A stretch of 32,985 nt of DNA from a virus (IMGVR_UViG_3300008267_000193:1-32985); one strand, 5' to 3'; numbered from the stretch's first letter, positions 25,792 through 31,434 are shown. The notes: generated by a model from the letters alone, not told the origin. Numbers and translations: made by a program.

Positions 25792-25820
25792 GTAATGCTT
25801 TATTGAAAAGAAAATATAAT

Positions 25821-26351
25821 ATGATTCTCGGATTAGACATAAGTACTTCTATAACTGGTTTTACGGTATTAAATGAAGATGGGACCATTCTTCATAATGA
25901 AGCTATAATACTAACTTCTAAAAAATTAGAAACATTTATAGAAAAAACAGAAGCAGTTAAGAAAAGATTTGTAGAACTTAAGTACTTATATAACATAAAG
26001 AAGATATATATAGAACAAAGTCTTAGCGCATTCCGTCCCGGCTTGTCAAGCGCTCAAGTAATTTTAACGTTAGGACGCTTCAACGGAATTGTTAGCTGGA
26101 TTTGCTATGAAACATTTGGTATAGTACCAGAGTATATTGGTGCAACAACAGCGCGTAAAGCGGTTGGAATAAAAGTTGAAAAAGGTGCAAACGCTAAAGA
26201 AGTTGTTCTTAAACATCTACTTGACAACGTACCTGACTTCAAAGTAGAGTACACCCCGAAAGGTAACGTAAAGCCTGGAGTTTATGACAGGGCTGATTCA
26301 TGGGTTATGGCCCGTGCGGGGTTCTTACAATGTCAGAAAGTAAAAAGCTAG
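25821..26351 (+). CDS. RuvC-like Holliday junction resolvase
   Basis: 176 residues from the ATG at 25821. An in-frame TTG at 25803 would add six residues (MKRKYN), but homologues usually start MxLGLDxS, so I prefer 25821; neither start has a strong SD. RNase H-fold acidic residues are visible: D6 in ILGLDIST, E65 in KIYIEQS, and D156/D159 in VYDRADSWVMA near the end. RuvC-family enzymes cut four-way junctions with paired metal ions. In phages they resolve recombination intermediates before packaging, the role filled by endonuclease VII in T4. It overlaps the primase gene by 22 bases, so the two are co-translated. Length is typical. Confidence 0.85.
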   Translation: MILGLDISTSITGFTVLNEDGTILHNEAIILTSKKLETFIEKTEAVKKRFVELKYLYNIKKIYIEQSLSAFRPGLSSAQVILTLGRFNGIVSWICYETFGIVPEYIGATTARKAVGIKVEKGANAKEVVLKHLLDNVPDFKVEYTPKGNVKPGVYDRADSWVMARAGFLQCQKVKS

Positions 26352-27274
26352 ATATCTTAAGAGATGTTCTTGGCAGCTACAGTAGAGCAGGCAACGAATA
26401 TCTTTTTAAATGTCCTTTCTGTACTCACCATAAAAAGAAACTCTCTGTTAACTTAAACAAAGATAAATTTAAGTGCTGGATTTGTGAACGTGCTGGTAGC
26501 ATTCACCGACTAGTACGCCGCCTTGGGAGCTTCCTACAGCAGCAAAAATGGAAAGAACTAACAGGAATTGTTGAAGTCTCAGAATTTGAAAAAATTATAT
26601 TAGACCAGCAATTAACACAAGAAGTTGAAGAAGAACAATTAGTACCATTACCACAAGAATTTAATTCCTTGTGTAATATAAATACTTCACTAGTATCAAC
26701 ACAGGCGTTAAATTATCTAAGCAAACGTGGGATCGATAAATATGATATTCTGCGTTGGAAGATTGGTTATTGCTCGTCTGGAAAATATGCTGGTAGGGTG
26801 ATTGTTCCAAGCTTTAATGAAGATGGTAAGGTTAATTACTTTATTGCCCGCTCCTATGATGGTAATTGGCGCAAATATCTAAACCCACCAGATAGCAAAG
26901 ACATTATATTTAATGAGTTGTACATTGATTGGGAAGATGATATTGTATTAACAGAAGGAGTATTTGATGCCATCAAAATTCCTAATTCAATACCAATCTT
27001 GGGATCTACTCTAAGAGAAAATTCAAAGCTGTTCCAAAACATCATCAAGCACGACCCAGCAGTCTATATGTCTTTAGATCCAGACGCAGAAACAAAAGAA
27101 TTCAAAATGATTGAATCATTGCTAAAATATGGAGTTGAAGTATATAAGGTTGAAATTAAACCATTTAAAGATGCTGGTGAGATGAGCAAACAGGAATTTA
27201 TGGAACGCAAGAAAAAAGCCACTCTTATTAAAAATACAGACTATTTATTGTTAGATAAAATTCTATCTATCTGA
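26330..27274 (+). CDS. 61: DNA primase (T4 gp61-like/DnaG-type)
   Basis: 314 residues from the ATG at 26330 (MSESKKLDILRDVLG), inside the end of the resolvase gene; longer in-frame extensions overlap that gene more and lack an SD. Zinc ribbon: C28-x2-C31 (KCPFCTHH) and C49-x2-C52 (KCWICERAG). The TOPRIM core follows: GRVIVPSFNEDGKVNYFIAR, then the glutamate in VLTEGVFDAIKI and the DxD in MSLDPDAETK. It makes short RNA primers for lagging-strand replication, acting with a gp41-type helicase not seen in this window. Size and motif order fit phage primases. Confidence 0.85.
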   Translation: MSESKKLDILRDVLGSYSRAGNEYLFKCPFCTHHKKKLSVNLNKDKFKCWICERAGSIHRLVRRLGSFLQQQKWKELTGIVEVSEFEKIILDQQLTQEVEEEQLVPLPQEFNSLCNINTSLVSTQALNYLSKRGIDKYDILRWKIGYCSSGKYAGRVIVPSFNEDGKVNYFIARSYDGNWRKYLNPPDSKDIIFNELYIDWEDDIVLTEGVFDAIKIPNSIPILGSTLRENSKLFQNIIKHDPAVYMSLDPDAETKEFKMIESLLKYGVEVYKVEIKPFKDAGEMSKQEFMERKKKATLIKNTDYLLLDKILSI

Positions 27275-27628: not shown

Positions 27629-27659
27629 AGTAGCCCTGAGAAATCGGGGCTATTTTTTT
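27629..27659 (+). terminator. Factor-independent terminator with GAAA tetraloop
   Basis: TAGCCCTGA (27631-27639), GAAA loop, TCGGGGCTA (27644-27652), then seven T. Nine pairs with one G-U. Ends the resolvase-primase transcript just before the nuclease gene. Confidence 0.9.
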
Positions 27660-27672
27660 ATTTGAGGTATAG

Positions 27673-28974
27673 ATGCACCGCATAATGCAAGTCAGCGACA
27701 CACACATTCTTACAAACAAGCGTCACGATGAATATCGTGAAGTGTTTTCTAAGATATATGAACTAGCACGTGAACAAAAAGTTACACATATTGTACATAC
27801 TGGTGATCTTTTTCATTCAAAACTACAATTAACACCAGAATGTGTTGCGTTAGCAGTTGAATTTCTGCGTAACCTATCAGAAATCGCACCTGTTTATATG
27901 ATATGTGGCAATCATGATTGCTCACTTAGATCAACTAAGAGACTTGATTCTATAACTCCTATTATAGACGCTATTAAAAGTGATAGAATTCACTACTTTA
28001 GAAAGTCCGGTGAGTATAATTTTGGAGATATAACGTTTGGAGCATTCTCAATGCTCGATCCAGACAACTATCCAAGACCAAGTGATCATTCAAAGATTAA
28101 TATAGCTCTTTATCATGGTTCTATAAGTGGGGTTATGACTGATTCTGGCTATGTCATTAGTCACGGTGACTGTGACGTTGAGATATTTAGAGGCTATGAT
28201 TACGGTCTTCTTGGCGATATTCATCTTTCCAACCAAAAAGTAGATGACGAAGGCAAGATCCGATATCCAGGTTCTACAATTCAACAGAACTTTGGTGAAA
28301 GTAATGATAAGGGCGTATTAATTTGGGATATACATGATAAAAATACGTTTGAATGTAAGCATTATGCATTTAAATGCCCAAAACCATTTATAACTCTTGA
28401 TCTAGACAGCGAAGGACGTTTTGATGAATGGCTAAAGCTACCAGTTGGGTCACGTATCAGACTAAATACCTTTTACAACCTAACTGCGGATAGGGTTAAA
28501 AACGCCATAGATGCCGTTAAAACGCGTTTTAAGCCAGAGAGTGTAACTTTTGTCAGCAAAGCACTAACTAATAAAGAAAACCTTGAGAAAGTATCCAATC
28601 TCTCTCGCATTATGAATCTACGAGATGTATCAGTTCAAGAAGAACTGATTGCAGAATATCTCAAACAATATAATCCATCTACAGAGATGCTTGATGGGGT
28701 ATATGAACTAAACCGCAAGTACAATTCTCAAGTAGAACACGGTGAAGATGTTGGCAGAAACATTAACTGGAGAATAAAATCTCTTGAGTGGGATAATTTG
28801 TTTAATTATGGAGAAGGTAATAGGATAGATTTTACAAAATTAAACGGAATTGTTGGAATTCTCGGTAAAAACTATTCTGGTAAATGCGTAGATGAAAAAA
28901 CAGAAATTGAAGTTGAATATGATGAAAAAGAAATTATTGCAAATTTAGGATATTTACCTGATTTCTTAAAATAA
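27673..28974 (+). CDS. 47: gp47 (Mre11/SbcD-like) nuclease fused to gp46 N-terminus and N-intein
   Basis: 433 residues; SD GAGG upstream. Residues 1-340 are a calcineurin-like nuclease with the metal ligands of the Mre11/SbcD/T4 gp47 family: D9 and H11 (SDTHI), D45 (HTGDLFH), N80-H81 (CGNHD), H148 (LYHGSI), and D182/H184 (GDIHL). Around residues 363-404 the chain continues into the start of a Rad50/SbcC/gp46 ATPase (IKSLEWDNLFNYGEGNRIDF, then GILGKNYSGK), so nuclease and ATPase are one polypeptide. The P-loop is broken after K404 by C405, the first residue of a 29-residue N-intein, and the gene stops there. The nuclease and ATPase process DNA ends for recombination-dependent replication. The remaining ATPase is encoded from 29137. 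Confidence 0.88.
   Translation: MHRIMQVSDTHILTNKRHDEYREVFSKIYELAREQKVTHIVHTGDLFHSKLQLTPECVALAVEFLRNLSEIAPVYMICGNHDCSLRSTKRLDSITPIIDAIKSDRIHYFRKSGEYNFGDITFGAFSMLDPDNYPRPSDHSKINIALYHGSISGVMTDSGYVISHGDCDVEIFRGYDYGLLGDIHLSNQKVDDEGKIRYPGSTIQQNFGESNDKGVLIWDIHDKNTFECKHYAFKCPKPFITLDLDSEGRFDEWLKLPVGSRIRLNTFYNLTADRVKNAIDAVKTRFKPESVTFVSKALTNKENLEKVSNLSRIMNLRDVSVQEELIAEYLKQYNPSTEMLDGVYELNRKYNSQVEHGEDVGRNINWRIKSLEWDNLFNYGEGNRIDFTKLNGIVGILGKNYSGKCVDEKTEIEVEYDEKEIIANLGYLPDFLK
28885..28971 (+). other. N-terminal half of a split intein (29 aa)
   Basis: Starts with Cys directly after the P-loop lysine and reads CVDEKTEIEVEY and so on to DFLK. This has the block A pattern of inteins (C1, T at position 6, alternating strand). 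It is far shorter than the 80-100-residue N-halves of canonical split inteins. It resembles the atypical N-proximal split of the AceL-TerL and VidaL type. Confidence 0.85.
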
Positions 28975-28988
28975 ATTTTCCTGGGTAA

Positions 28989-29024
28989 TTCATCTCCAGT
29001 GTGCCATTTACATGAGGAGATGAA
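28989..29024 (+). promoter_or_regulatory. RBS-sequestering hairpin
   Basis: TTCATCTCC (28989-28997) is perfectly complementary to GGAGATGAA (29016-29024), with an 18-base loop. The 3' arm covers the GAGGAG SD of the 18-codon relic ORF at 29027. Such hairpins silence homing endonuclease genes on early transcripts in T4-like phages (known for I-TevI). It may be a surviving control element of a lost endonuclease. Confidence 0.6.
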
Positions 29025-29026
29025 AA

Positions 29027-29083
29027 ATGAAATACTTAAATTGTATAGATTGTAAGAAAGAAAAAGTTAATATTAAAAAATAA
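29027..29083 (+). pseudogene. Relic of a homing endonuclease N-terminus (18 codons)
   Basis: Behind a good SD (GAGGAG at 29014-29019) is an ORF of MKYLNCIDCKKEKVNIKK and a stop. The CxxC plus KKEK/KVNI pattern is how zinc-finger HNH/Vsr-like phage homing endonucleases often begin. It lies exactly between the two intein halves, where fractured phage genes usually carry a free-standing homing endonuclease gene. The rest of such a gene is absent, so I read it as a deletion remnant. It could instead be a chance mini-ORF. Confidence 0.45.
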
Positions 29084-29136
29084 TTTTAATTGTTTTATGT
29101 CTAATAATATAGAGTTAATAAAAAAAAGGATTTTAC

Positions 29137-29508
29137 ATGAAAAAGAAAATAACAATAGCGCAAGCTTATAAACTGTTTAATCTTTCTAGAGACATAAATA
29201 TAAAAGTATTAACTCCTTATGGATATAAAAAAATCTTATGGTGTGACATAACTTCAAAAAATAGCACTGTTGTCAGAACAACGTTAGAAAACGGATGCTT
29301 TTTAGAATCCTCACCGGAACATCTACTTAAAATTAATAATAAAGATTTTAAAAAAATTATAGATTTAAAGCCAAACGATTGCGTACTAACATTTGATGGT
29401 AAAAGTAAGATAGTTTCTCAAGAAATTTTGAAACATAAAAAAGATCTATATGATATAGAAGTAGAAGATGTGCATCAATATTTTTCAAATGGAATAGTAT
29501 CGCATAAT
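29137..29508 (+). other. C-terminal half of a split intein (124 aa)
   Basis: Hint-fold features in order: strand NIKVLTPYGYKKI, block B with TTLENGCFLESSPEHLL (SxxH, H62, in place of the usual TxxH), block F (DLYDIEVEDVHQYF), block G ending NGIVSHN with penultimate H123 and terminal N124. The +1 residue is Ser, the Walker A serine. Colinear with the upstream 29-residue half, with no endonuclease domain. Confidence 0.88.
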
Positions 29509-31434
29509 TCTTCAGCAGGAATAGATACTCTCTTATATACTATTTTTAATACTACTTCTAAAAATAATCGCAAAAACTTAAATATCATCAATCAAAACCG
29601 TGAACGCGGTCGCGGAAAAGTAGTTATTGATATTGATGGAAATGAATATACTATCGAAAGAACATCAGAAAAGTATACTAAAAAAAGTAAAGGTGTTGAA
29701 ATAACAGAAGCAAAGACCGATGTTGAGTTTACTGGTATTGATGAATCAACTTTAACTGGTCTTGATCGTAGTGACACAGATAAAATTATTCGTAAGTATC
29801 TGGGCACCGTAGACGACTTTATGTTAACTTCTGCTGCAACACAATTTTCAGCACAATCGTTTATTTCAGAAGGTTCTACAAATCGCAAAGCAATTCTTGC
29901 TAAATTCCTTGATCTAGATCTTTTTGAAGCAAAATTCAAAGCAGCTAAATCAGAAGTAGCAGCTACTAAAGTGTTACTCAAGAAGCTAGAAACTATTGAT
30001 TACGAGAAAGAAATTAATGAAACAAAGGAATTAATAAAACTATCAGAAAAAAATATCGAATCTGCAAATCAAGAATTATTAGTTGTAAGTGATGAATTAA
30101 ATAAAAACAGACAAGAACTATTCTCAGTACAAAGTCAAATTAAGATTCTTGAAAAAGATAATACTAAACTAACTGATCTTCTCAAAAACAAAGATGGTTA
30201 TAGCCAAGCAATAAAAATTCTAAATGATAGAATAATTCAATGTGAATCTGAAATAAATAAATTAACCATGGAGTTATCTGGTCTACAACCAGATCTATCT
30301 GTTAACATTGAAGAACTATTATCAAATAAATCAAAAATAGATGCTAACTCTAAAACACTTGATGAACTTAGAGGTGAGCATGCACTTGTAAAACAACAAA
30401 ATAATACCCTTAAGGAAAGAATTAAATTACTATCTGAGGTTCCTTGCGGTACACAGTTTCCTAATTGTAAATTTATCAACAACGCACATACAGCTAATGA
30501 TAAAAAACCACAATCTGATAAAAAATTAATTAAAATTAATGCAGGTATAGACAAGTTATTAAAAGAACAAGCCGAACTAGACGCTGAGTCTGTATCTAAA
30601 AAGATAGACAGATACAATACAGCTTTATCTGTTCAACAAAAAATTAATAATTCAATAAAAGAAATTGAAGCTAGCATAGAAAAATGGAAGTATAAACTAG
30701 AGATTGGCGAAGAATCGCTAGAAAAAACTATTAAGGAACTTGTTGAGTTCAACAACTCAGACTCTGATAAGGATGTTTATGATACCCTTGTTAAATCAGA
30801 ACGTGAAATCAAACTGGCTATAAACAGTTTGGAAATGAATTATAGTGGTATTCAACAAAAAGTTACTAATCTATACAAAGAAAGCGGTTATCTTGTATCA
30901 AAGTTAGAAACACTTGAAGAACAAAAGCAAGAATTAGCTGAAAAACGAGCAGAATTTGGTGTATATGATCTGTTCTTGAAATGTATGCATCCAAACGGGA
31001 TCTCATATCAAGTAATTAAAAATAAACTACCAGTAATAAACGAAGAAATAAATAAAATATTAGCAAATGTTGTAGAATTTGAGGTTTATCTATTGAATGA
31101 TGATGATAAACTTGATATAATGATTAAACATCCAAAACACGAAGCTAGACCATTGGAGATGGGAAGTGGAGCAGAAAAATCATTAGCCTCAATAGCAATA
31201 AGATTAGCGTTTTTACAAGTTACAAGTTTACCAAAATCGGATTTTATAATTTTAGATGAACCAGGCACAAGCCTTGACCCAGATAACTTATCTGGATTTA
31301 TCCGTATCTTGGATCTAATTAAGTCATACTTTAAGACAGTAATCCTAATCAGCCATTTAGATGTTCTTAAAGATGCAGTAGATGTTCAGATCACGATTGA
31401 CCGCAGAGGCGACTATGCTTATGTCAACCAATAG
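29137..31434 (+). CDS. 46: C-intein plus gp46 (Rad50/SbcC-like) recombination ATPase
   Basis: 765 residues; SD AAGGA (29126-29130). Residues 1-124 are the C-intein. From S125 the gp46 ATPase resumes (SSAGIDTLLYTIFN), completing a Walker A with the upstream GKNYSGK. Long coiled coils occupy about residues 270-600, interrupted near the apex by C437-x6-C444 (PCGTQFPNCKF), a candidate zinc hook with wider spacing than the usual CxxC. Near the C-terminus are the ABC signature (GSGAEKS, 676-682), Walker B (FIILDE, D707-E708), the D-loop (SLDP) and the switch histidine H740 (LISHLD). After trans-splicing it would form one chain with gp47 that resects DNA ends and supports recombination-dependent replication. 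A good SD shows it is translated separately. Confidence 0.9.
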   Translation: MKKKITIAQAYKLFNLSRDINIKVLTPYGYKKILWCDITSKNSTVVRTTLENGCFLESSPEHLLKINNKDFKKIIDLKPNDCVLTFDGKSKIVSQEILKHKKDLYDIEVEDVHQYFSNGIVSHNSSAGIDTLLYTIFNTTSKNNRKNLNIINQNRERGRGKVVIDIDGNEYTIERTSEKYTKKSKGVEITEAKTDVEFTGIDESTLTGLDRSDTDKIIRKYLGTVDDFMLTSAATQFSAQSFISEGSTNRKAILAKFLDLDLFEAKFKAAKSEVAATKVLLKKLETIDYEKEINETKELIKLSEKNIESANQELLVVSDELNKNRQELFSVQSQIKILEKDNTKLTDLLKNKDGYSQAIKILNDRIIQCESEINKLTMELSGLQPDLSVNIEELLSNKSKIDANSKTLDELRGEHALVKQQNNTLKERIKLLSEVPCGTQFPNCKFINNAHTANDKKPQSDKKLIKINAGIDKLLKEQAELDAESVSKKIDRYNTALSVQQKINNSIKEIEASIEKWKYKLEIGEESLEKTIKELVEFNNSDSDKDVYDTLVKSEREIKLAINSLEMNYSGIQQKVTNLYKESGYLVSKLETLEEQKQELAEKRAEFGVYDLFLKCMHPNGISYQVIKNKLPVINEEINKILANVVEFEVYLLNDDDKLDIMIKHPKHEARPLEMGSGAEKSLASIAIRLAFLQVTSLPKSDFIILDEPGTSLDPDNLSGFIRILDLIKSYFKTVILISHLDVLKDAVDVQITIDRRGDYAYVNQ

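What the first reader, a model, noticed from the sequence alone, without database searches (positions are those of the whole stretch)
27673..31434. Nuclease and ATPase of the gp47-gp46 complex fused in a single chain that exists only after trans-splicing
Seen: the Mre11-like domain runs without a stop into the Rad50 N-terminal lobe; with the C-extein the spliced chain would be about 1045 residues (404 + 641). In T4 and most relatives gp47 and gp46 are separate. Here the two ATPase lobes lie on different genes, so ATPase activity, and possibly the whole recombination nuclease, would be conditional on splicing. That could tie recombination-dependent replication to timing or redox state.
Basis: partly seen in the sequence, partly recalled or inferred. 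Interest (0 to 1): 0.75.

Follow-up and report, generated by a model that had tools for sequence, protein, structure and literature searches.

The report
Mobile split intein fractures phage Mre11-Rad50
In this phage, a parasitic 'protein-splicing' element sits exactly inside the ATP-binding site of a one-piece DNA-repair nuclease, so the enzyme is made in two halves that probably rejoin themselves; related phages carry the same gene unbroken, or with the same element at other stages of decay.

Summary
ORF 27673-28974 is an Mre11/gp47 domain that runs into the first ~40 residues of Rad50/gp46 and stops inside the P-loop (GKNYSGK). It is followed by a 29-residue N-intein. ORF 29137-31434 is a 124-residue C-intein plus Ser+1 and 641 residues of Rad50. 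The spliced length is 404+641=1045.

Two corrections. First, the fusion is not created by splicing. In about 120 distinct Mre11-Rad50 fusion genes from related viral contigs, 112 are open over at least 900 aa, nearly all ~1040-1050 aa with an empty P-loop site. Such fusions were published in 2011. Second, the ATPase lobes are not on separate genes. The P-loop itself is cut, and most of the N-lobe is on the second gene.

The element is an atypically split, Cys1 intein (nearest solved structure VidaL). The same element lies at the same P-loop in distant fusions: with an intact homing endonuclease (L095, L107), a truncated one (L096), contiguous (L098), and without one in a stand-alone gp46 (L114/L115). 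Inteins are 50-61% identical where host proteins are 24-39%, so it moves horizontally. In the window the endonuclease is nearly gone. Trans-splicing is probably constitutive; timing or redox control has no support.

The parts
27673..28884 (+). N-extein: Mre11/SbcD/gp47 phosphoesterase plus capping and helical Rad50-binding segments, then the first ~40 aa of Rad50 up to P-loop GKNYSGK (404 aa)
   Evidence: fold of relative L013
28885..28971 (+). N-intein, 29 aa, CVDEKTEIEVEYDEKEIIANLGYLPDFLK (Cys1, block A strand, helix 1); TAA at 28972-28974
   Evidence: family members; contiguous form in L098
28989..29024 (+). RNA hairpin TTCATCTCC...GGAGATGAA whose 3' arm covers most of the Shine-Dalgarno-like GAGGAG of the mini-ORF; similar position to the hairpins before the endonuclease ORFs of L095 and L107
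29027..29083 (+). 18-codon mini-ORF MKYLNCIDCKKEKVNIKK, probable remnant of the homing endonuclease start (CxxC); matches the remnant in L096
   Evidence: about 2 of 2000 shuffles as good against L096; not significant against L107 or L095
29137..29508 (+). C-intein, 124 aa, ending GIVSHN (penultimate His, terminal Asn)
29509..31434 (+). C-extein: Ser+1 and remaining 641 aa of Rad50/SbcC/gp46 (rest of N-lobe, coiled coil, signature MGSGAEKS, Walker B, D-loop)
30437..30479 (+). hook region VPCGTQFPNCKF (C-x6-C) at the apex of the coiled coil, conserved in the family; approximate coordinates
   Evidence: both Cys invariant in the alignment
26300..27274 (+). DnaG-like primase next to the locus (same neighbour in L095 and Mel-JY01); start codon uncertain
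25803..26351 (+). RuvC-like resolvase, part of the shared neighbourhood
27629..27654 (+). intrinsic-terminator-like hairpin with T run upstream of the locus; none found between the two halves

Best explanation
A mobile, atypically split, Cys1 (class-1-like) intein inserted precisely between Lys and Ser of the Walker A motif of a naturally fused Mre11-Rad50 gene. It arrived as a 'fractured gene' unit: N-intein, then a homing endonuclease gene behind a hairpin covering its ribosome site, then C-intein. The endonuclease made it spread into empty P-loop sites. In this phage the endonuclease has since decayed to an 18-codon stub. The two precursors (Mre11-Rad50N-IntN and IntC-Rad50) associate through the intein halves. 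Cys1 and Ser+1 do the acyl shifts and transesterification, Asn cyclises, and the 1045-residue single-chain Mre11-Rad50 is restored. Shown by sequence: fusion in relatives, exact insertion, conserved splice residues, related elements with an intervening endonuclease-like ORF, horizontal spread. Inferred: that splicing occurs, that it is constitutive, that the intervening ORF is an active homing endonuclease, that the stub derives from it, and the nuclease function in recombination and replication.
For: Exact empty site: L013 ...GKNYSGK|SSAGVDTLLYTLFN and L005, against the 624-nt insert 28885-29508. Of ~120 distinct fusion genes, 112 are open over at least 900 aa and 4 more run off the contig past the P-loop. 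The window nests inside empty relatives with 100% SH-aLRT at three forks. Same element at the same P-loop in L095 (407-aa intervening ORF), L099/L103/L107 (391-aa ORF), L096 (64-aa remnant), L098 (contiguous intein), and at the stand-alone gp46 P-loop in L114/L115. Inteins 50-61% identical while N- and C-exteins are 24-39%. The L095 and L107 intervening proteins are homologous (33%, E 3e-34). Profile hit to VidaL E 7.3e-12; the L098 contiguous intein is predicted at pLDDT 93 and its best PDB fold is VidaL (E 7.8e-11, target TM 0.86). Both halves keep their motifs; pN is far below pS against relatives (0.15-0.29 against 0.69-0.73). Literature: fusions (PMC3175470), N-inteins of 15-37 aa (PMC13014065), ribosome-site hairpins before phage homing endonucleases (PMC2988022).
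Against: No splicing experiment. The mini-ORF match to the endonuclease is short and convincing only against the L096 remnant. Synonymous sites are saturated, so selection since the insertion cannot be isolated. The contig is a 33-kb fragment. Which of split or contiguous came first is undecided.
Confidence: 0.9

Rival explanations
1. The intein is dead and the two halves assemble without splicing into a working non-covalent enzyme, as reported for nrdA split by mobE in phage Aeh1.
For: Split phage enzymes that work without splicing are known (PMC2988022).
Against: All splice residues (Cys1, S-x-x-H block B, His-Asn, Ser+1) are kept in the window and in divergent members at 50-61% identity. 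The break is inside the P-loop, where a non-covalent join with a 29-aa and a 124-aa tail would probably block the ATP site.
Confidence: 0.05
2. The split is a regulatory device: splicing, and so ATPase and nuclease activity, is conditional on timing or redox state.
For: Cys-dependent inteins can be impaired by oxidation (PMC10189870). The two halves have separate start sites.
Against: Element distribution is that of a mobile parasite; the same element occurs in RecA, DnaB-like and gp46 genes; no terminator-like site between the halves; the nearest relatives do without it.
Confidence: 0.05
3. Artefact: assembly error or frameshift inside an ordinary contiguous intein.
For: A contiguous version exists in L098.
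Against: Five to seven stops in every frame of the gap; the same split point in independent contigs L095, L096, L099/L107.
Confidence: 0.02

Closest known systems
Fractured genes with split inteins and free-standing homing endonucleases (Dassa et al. 2009, doi 10.1093/nar/gkp095; known here from memory and from citations, text not held)
   Same: Host gene broken by split intein halves with an endonuclease-like ORF between (L095, L107)
   Different: Host is a fused Mre11-Rad50; N-intein is short; in the window the endonuclease has decayed to a stub
Atypically split inteins: VidaL, AceL TerL, GOS TerL, PolB16 OarG
   Same: Short N-intein (29 aa, within the 15-37 aa reported), long C-intein; VidaL is the nearest solved relative by sequence and fold. 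The break after helix 1 corresponds to the S2 position of AceL and GOS TerL (PMC13014065)
   Different: VidaL and PolB16 break earlier (S1 position); only about 21% identity to VidaL in the fold alignment; different host gene
Mre11/Rad50 fusion proteins (Mimivirus R555 and aquatic viral homologues; Yoshida et al. 2011, PMC3175470)
   Same: One chain, N-terminal Mre11 and C-terminal Rad50; abundant in aquatic virus metagenomes
   Different: Those were reported as fusions; the paper does not mention inteins
T4 gp47/gp46
   Same: Domain functions, phage recombination nuclease
   Different: Two separate genes; no intein

Membership tests
Atypically split intein | HINT fold and intein motifs across the two fragments | tested here: met
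   PF14890 hit in window (E 4.3e-6 but under Pfam's cut-off); profile to VidaL 7.3e-12; fold of contiguous homologue L098. The window pair itself could not be folded as one chain
Atypically split intein | Short N-intein (15-37 aa) and long C-intein on separate ORFs | tested here: met
   29 aa and 124 aa, stops between in all frames; range from PMC13014065
Atypically split intein | Catalytic residues at both junctions (Cys1; His-Asn; Ser/Thr/Cys+1) | tested here: met
   GK|C......SHN|S
Atypically split intein | Splices in trans | not testable with these tools
   needs co-expression
Fractured gene with homing endonuclease | Empty-site homologues with precise insertion | tested here: met
   L013, L005 and ~110 others
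Fractured gene with homing endonuclease | Endonuclease ORF between the halves | tested here: not met
   Window has only an 18-codon stub; related elements L095 and L107 do carry an intervening ORF, so the window is read as a decayed member
Mre11/Rad50 fusion | Mre11-type phosphoesterase and Rad50-type ATPase in one reading frame in homologues | tested here: met
   fold search hits Mre11, Rad50 and SbcCD structures
Mre11/Rad50 fusion | Nuclease and ATPase activity | not testable with these tools
   motifs intact; no assay

The most novel reading that the evidence does not exclude
After losing its endonuclease the split intein has been kept because trans-splicing usefully delays or gates assembly of the P-loop, making the phage's recombination nuclease active only when both halves have accumulated.
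Probability: 0.07. Interest if true: 0.75.

Novelty: new member of a known kind. Interest (0 to 1): 0.5.

Why it matters
The contigs give a series at one site: empty, split with an intact endonuclease-like ORF, split with a truncated one, split with a stub (the window), and contiguous. That makes the birth and decay of a split intein directly comparable. The host gene belongs to the break-processing machinery that homing itself may use (gp46/gp47 are listed as possible homing functions in PMC2988022). The family also supplies several natural short-N-intein pairs (26-30 aa at this P-loop site) for protein chemistry.

Tried and rejected
Rfam on the locus: only sub-threshold chance hits, no intron. 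Promoter scan: no more than shuffles. Uninterrupted second gp46 in the contig: none. Searching close relatives of the C-intein directly found only a contiguous helicase intein; the productive step was a DNA pattern for the P-loop followed by Cys, and then for the N-intein start. A search with the L107 endonuclease-like ORF found only its own allele. dN/dS: synonymous sites saturated, so only a rough indication. Two family scans failed on a wrong frame. The 2009 fractured-genes paper is not held.

Full report
Observation. Two ORFs lie head to tail on the + strand, 27673-28974 (433 aa) and 29137-31434 (765 aa). The first matches SbcD/Mre11 families and the second SbcC/Rad50 plus an intein C-terminal region. 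The first reads without a stop from Mre11 into the start of Rad50 and reaches the P-loop, GILGKNYSGK, then CVDEKTEIEVEYDEKEIIANLGYLPDFLK and stop. The second opens with 124 residues that end SHN and continues SSAGIDTLLYTIFN, the second half of the P-loop and the first helix.

Correction on the lobes. Only about 40 residues of Rad50, two or three beta strands and the P-loop up to its lysine, are on gene 1. Most of the N-lobe, the coiled coil with a C-x6-C hook (both cysteines invariant in 27 relatives) and the C-lobe are on gene 2. The predicted fold of the uninterrupted relative L013 (mean pLDDT 81, pTM 0.47, so domain placement is unsure) shows the Mre11 helices at 320-357 followed after a few residues by Rad50 strand 1 at 366. 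Its best PDB matches include Mre11, Rad50 and SbcCD entries.

Not chance, not an error. The gap between the IntN stop and the IntC start has seven stops in frame 0 and five in each other frame, so a single frameshift cannot explain it. The intein model hits the window at E 4.3e-6. A profile of the family hits VidaL at 7.3e-12 and gp41-1 at 3.5e-11 among solved structures.

The fusion is the ordinary state. tblastn and locus searches found the same gene in one piece in Microcystis phage Mel-JY01 and in many IMG/VR contigs. Among 123 distinct loci, three of them copies or pieces of the window itself, 112 are open over at least 900 aa and 4 run off their contig past the P-loop; one of the 112, L098, holds the contiguous intein. 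Nearly all the rest read GKN[YF]SGK|S across the site. The searches rank by similarity, so these counts are not population frequencies. Mre11/Rad50 fusions in aquatic viruses were described in 2011 (PMC3175470).

The insertion. Aligned with L013 and L005, the window carries exactly 624 extra bases, 28885-29508, between the Lys and Ser codons of Walker A. In a tree of exteins the window sits inside empty relatives with 100% SH-aLRT at three forks; the five intein-bearing genes need at least three to four changes (several long branches, so deep placement is unsure).

Relatives of the element. A DNA pattern for GKN..GK followed by Cys found L095. There a 448-aa Mre11-Rad50N-IntN ORF, a 407-aa ORF and an IntC-Rad50 ORF lie in a row, with primase-like and RuvC-like neighbours as in the window. 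A pattern for the N-intein start found more. At the fusion P-loop: L099/L103/L107 with a 391-aa ORF between the halves, L096 with a 64-aa remnant, and L098 with the intein contiguous. At a stand-alone gp46 P-loop: L114/L115. Related N-inteins also occur in DnaB-like helicase and RecA genes. The L095 and L107 intervening proteins are homologous (33%, E 3e-34). They are taken to be homing endonucleases from their position and from weak matches of the L107 protein to HNH-endonuclease and resolvase families; activity is untested.

Horizontal spread. Among the fusion genes, inteins are 50-61% identical pairwise, while N-exteins are 29-39% and C-exteins 24-33%. The window's closest exteins (about 62-80% in the N-half) have no intein.

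Decay in the window. The 162-nt gap holds a 9-bp hairpin covering most of a Shine-Dalgarno-like GAGGAG, followed by an 18-codon ORF, MKYLNCIDCKKEKVNIKK. Hairpins lie at the same place before the ORFs in L095 and L107. Ribosome-site hairpins are known for several phage homing endonucleases (PMC2988022). The mini-ORF aligns with the L096 remnant (about 2 of 2000 shuffles as good) but not significantly with L107 or L095. A decayed endonuclease is therefore likely, not proven.

Mechanism. By established intein chemistry, the halves associate, Cys1 forms the thioester, Ser+1 takes over the N-extein, Asn cyclises, and a native peptide bond forms between Lys404 and Ser. The N-intein ends after the first helix: in the L098 model (pLDDT 93) that helix is residues 14-21 and the next strand starts at 36. 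This corresponds to the S2 split site of AceL TerL and GOS TerL, and its length falls within the 15-37 aa reported (PMC13014065). The best fold match is VidaL. Splicing itself is inferred.

Regulation. Nothing found supports timing or redox control. No terminator-like site lies between the halves, and the element's distribution is that of a parasite lodged where imprecise loss would destroy the gene. Cys-dependent inteins can be impaired by oxidation (PMC10189870), so redox dependence is possible in principle.

Verdict. A well-supported new member of the fractured-gene, atypically split intein kind in a known type of fusion gene. Its value lies in the series of states at one site.

Noticed in passing
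L005:9089-11113: The nearest relative contig carries a contiguous intein with a long, endonuclease-sized insert in the gene downstream of its terminase-like gene (portal by position).
   Followed up: partly
L003:7950-12175 (LR756508.1, 484-kb phage): The Mre11 half of a fused Mre11-Rad50 gene is broken near the GDIH motif by a 305-aa ORF with a TnsA-like nuclease domain; no Rfam intron match and no clear intein junctions, so it may be a free-standing endonuclease split.
   Followed up: partly
L102, L104, L112, L118, L119 (start of each match): In RecA-like genes one intein appears to end (LSHN) only seven residues (TMYGDPT) before another begins (CVDLDTEIEVEF).
   Followed up: no
L098:4105-4578: Contiguous version of the same intein at the same P-loop, useful to decide whether the split or the one-piece form came first.
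   Followed up: partly
L105, L106, L109, L110, L111, L113, L100: DnaB-like helicase P-loops (G[NS]PGGGK|C) carry a related intein, split in some contigs (56-58 aa N-part) and contiguous in others.
   Followed up: partly
window 27629-27654: Strong intrinsic-terminator-like hairpin just upstream of the fused gene, suggesting that it starts its own transcription unit.
   Followed up: no
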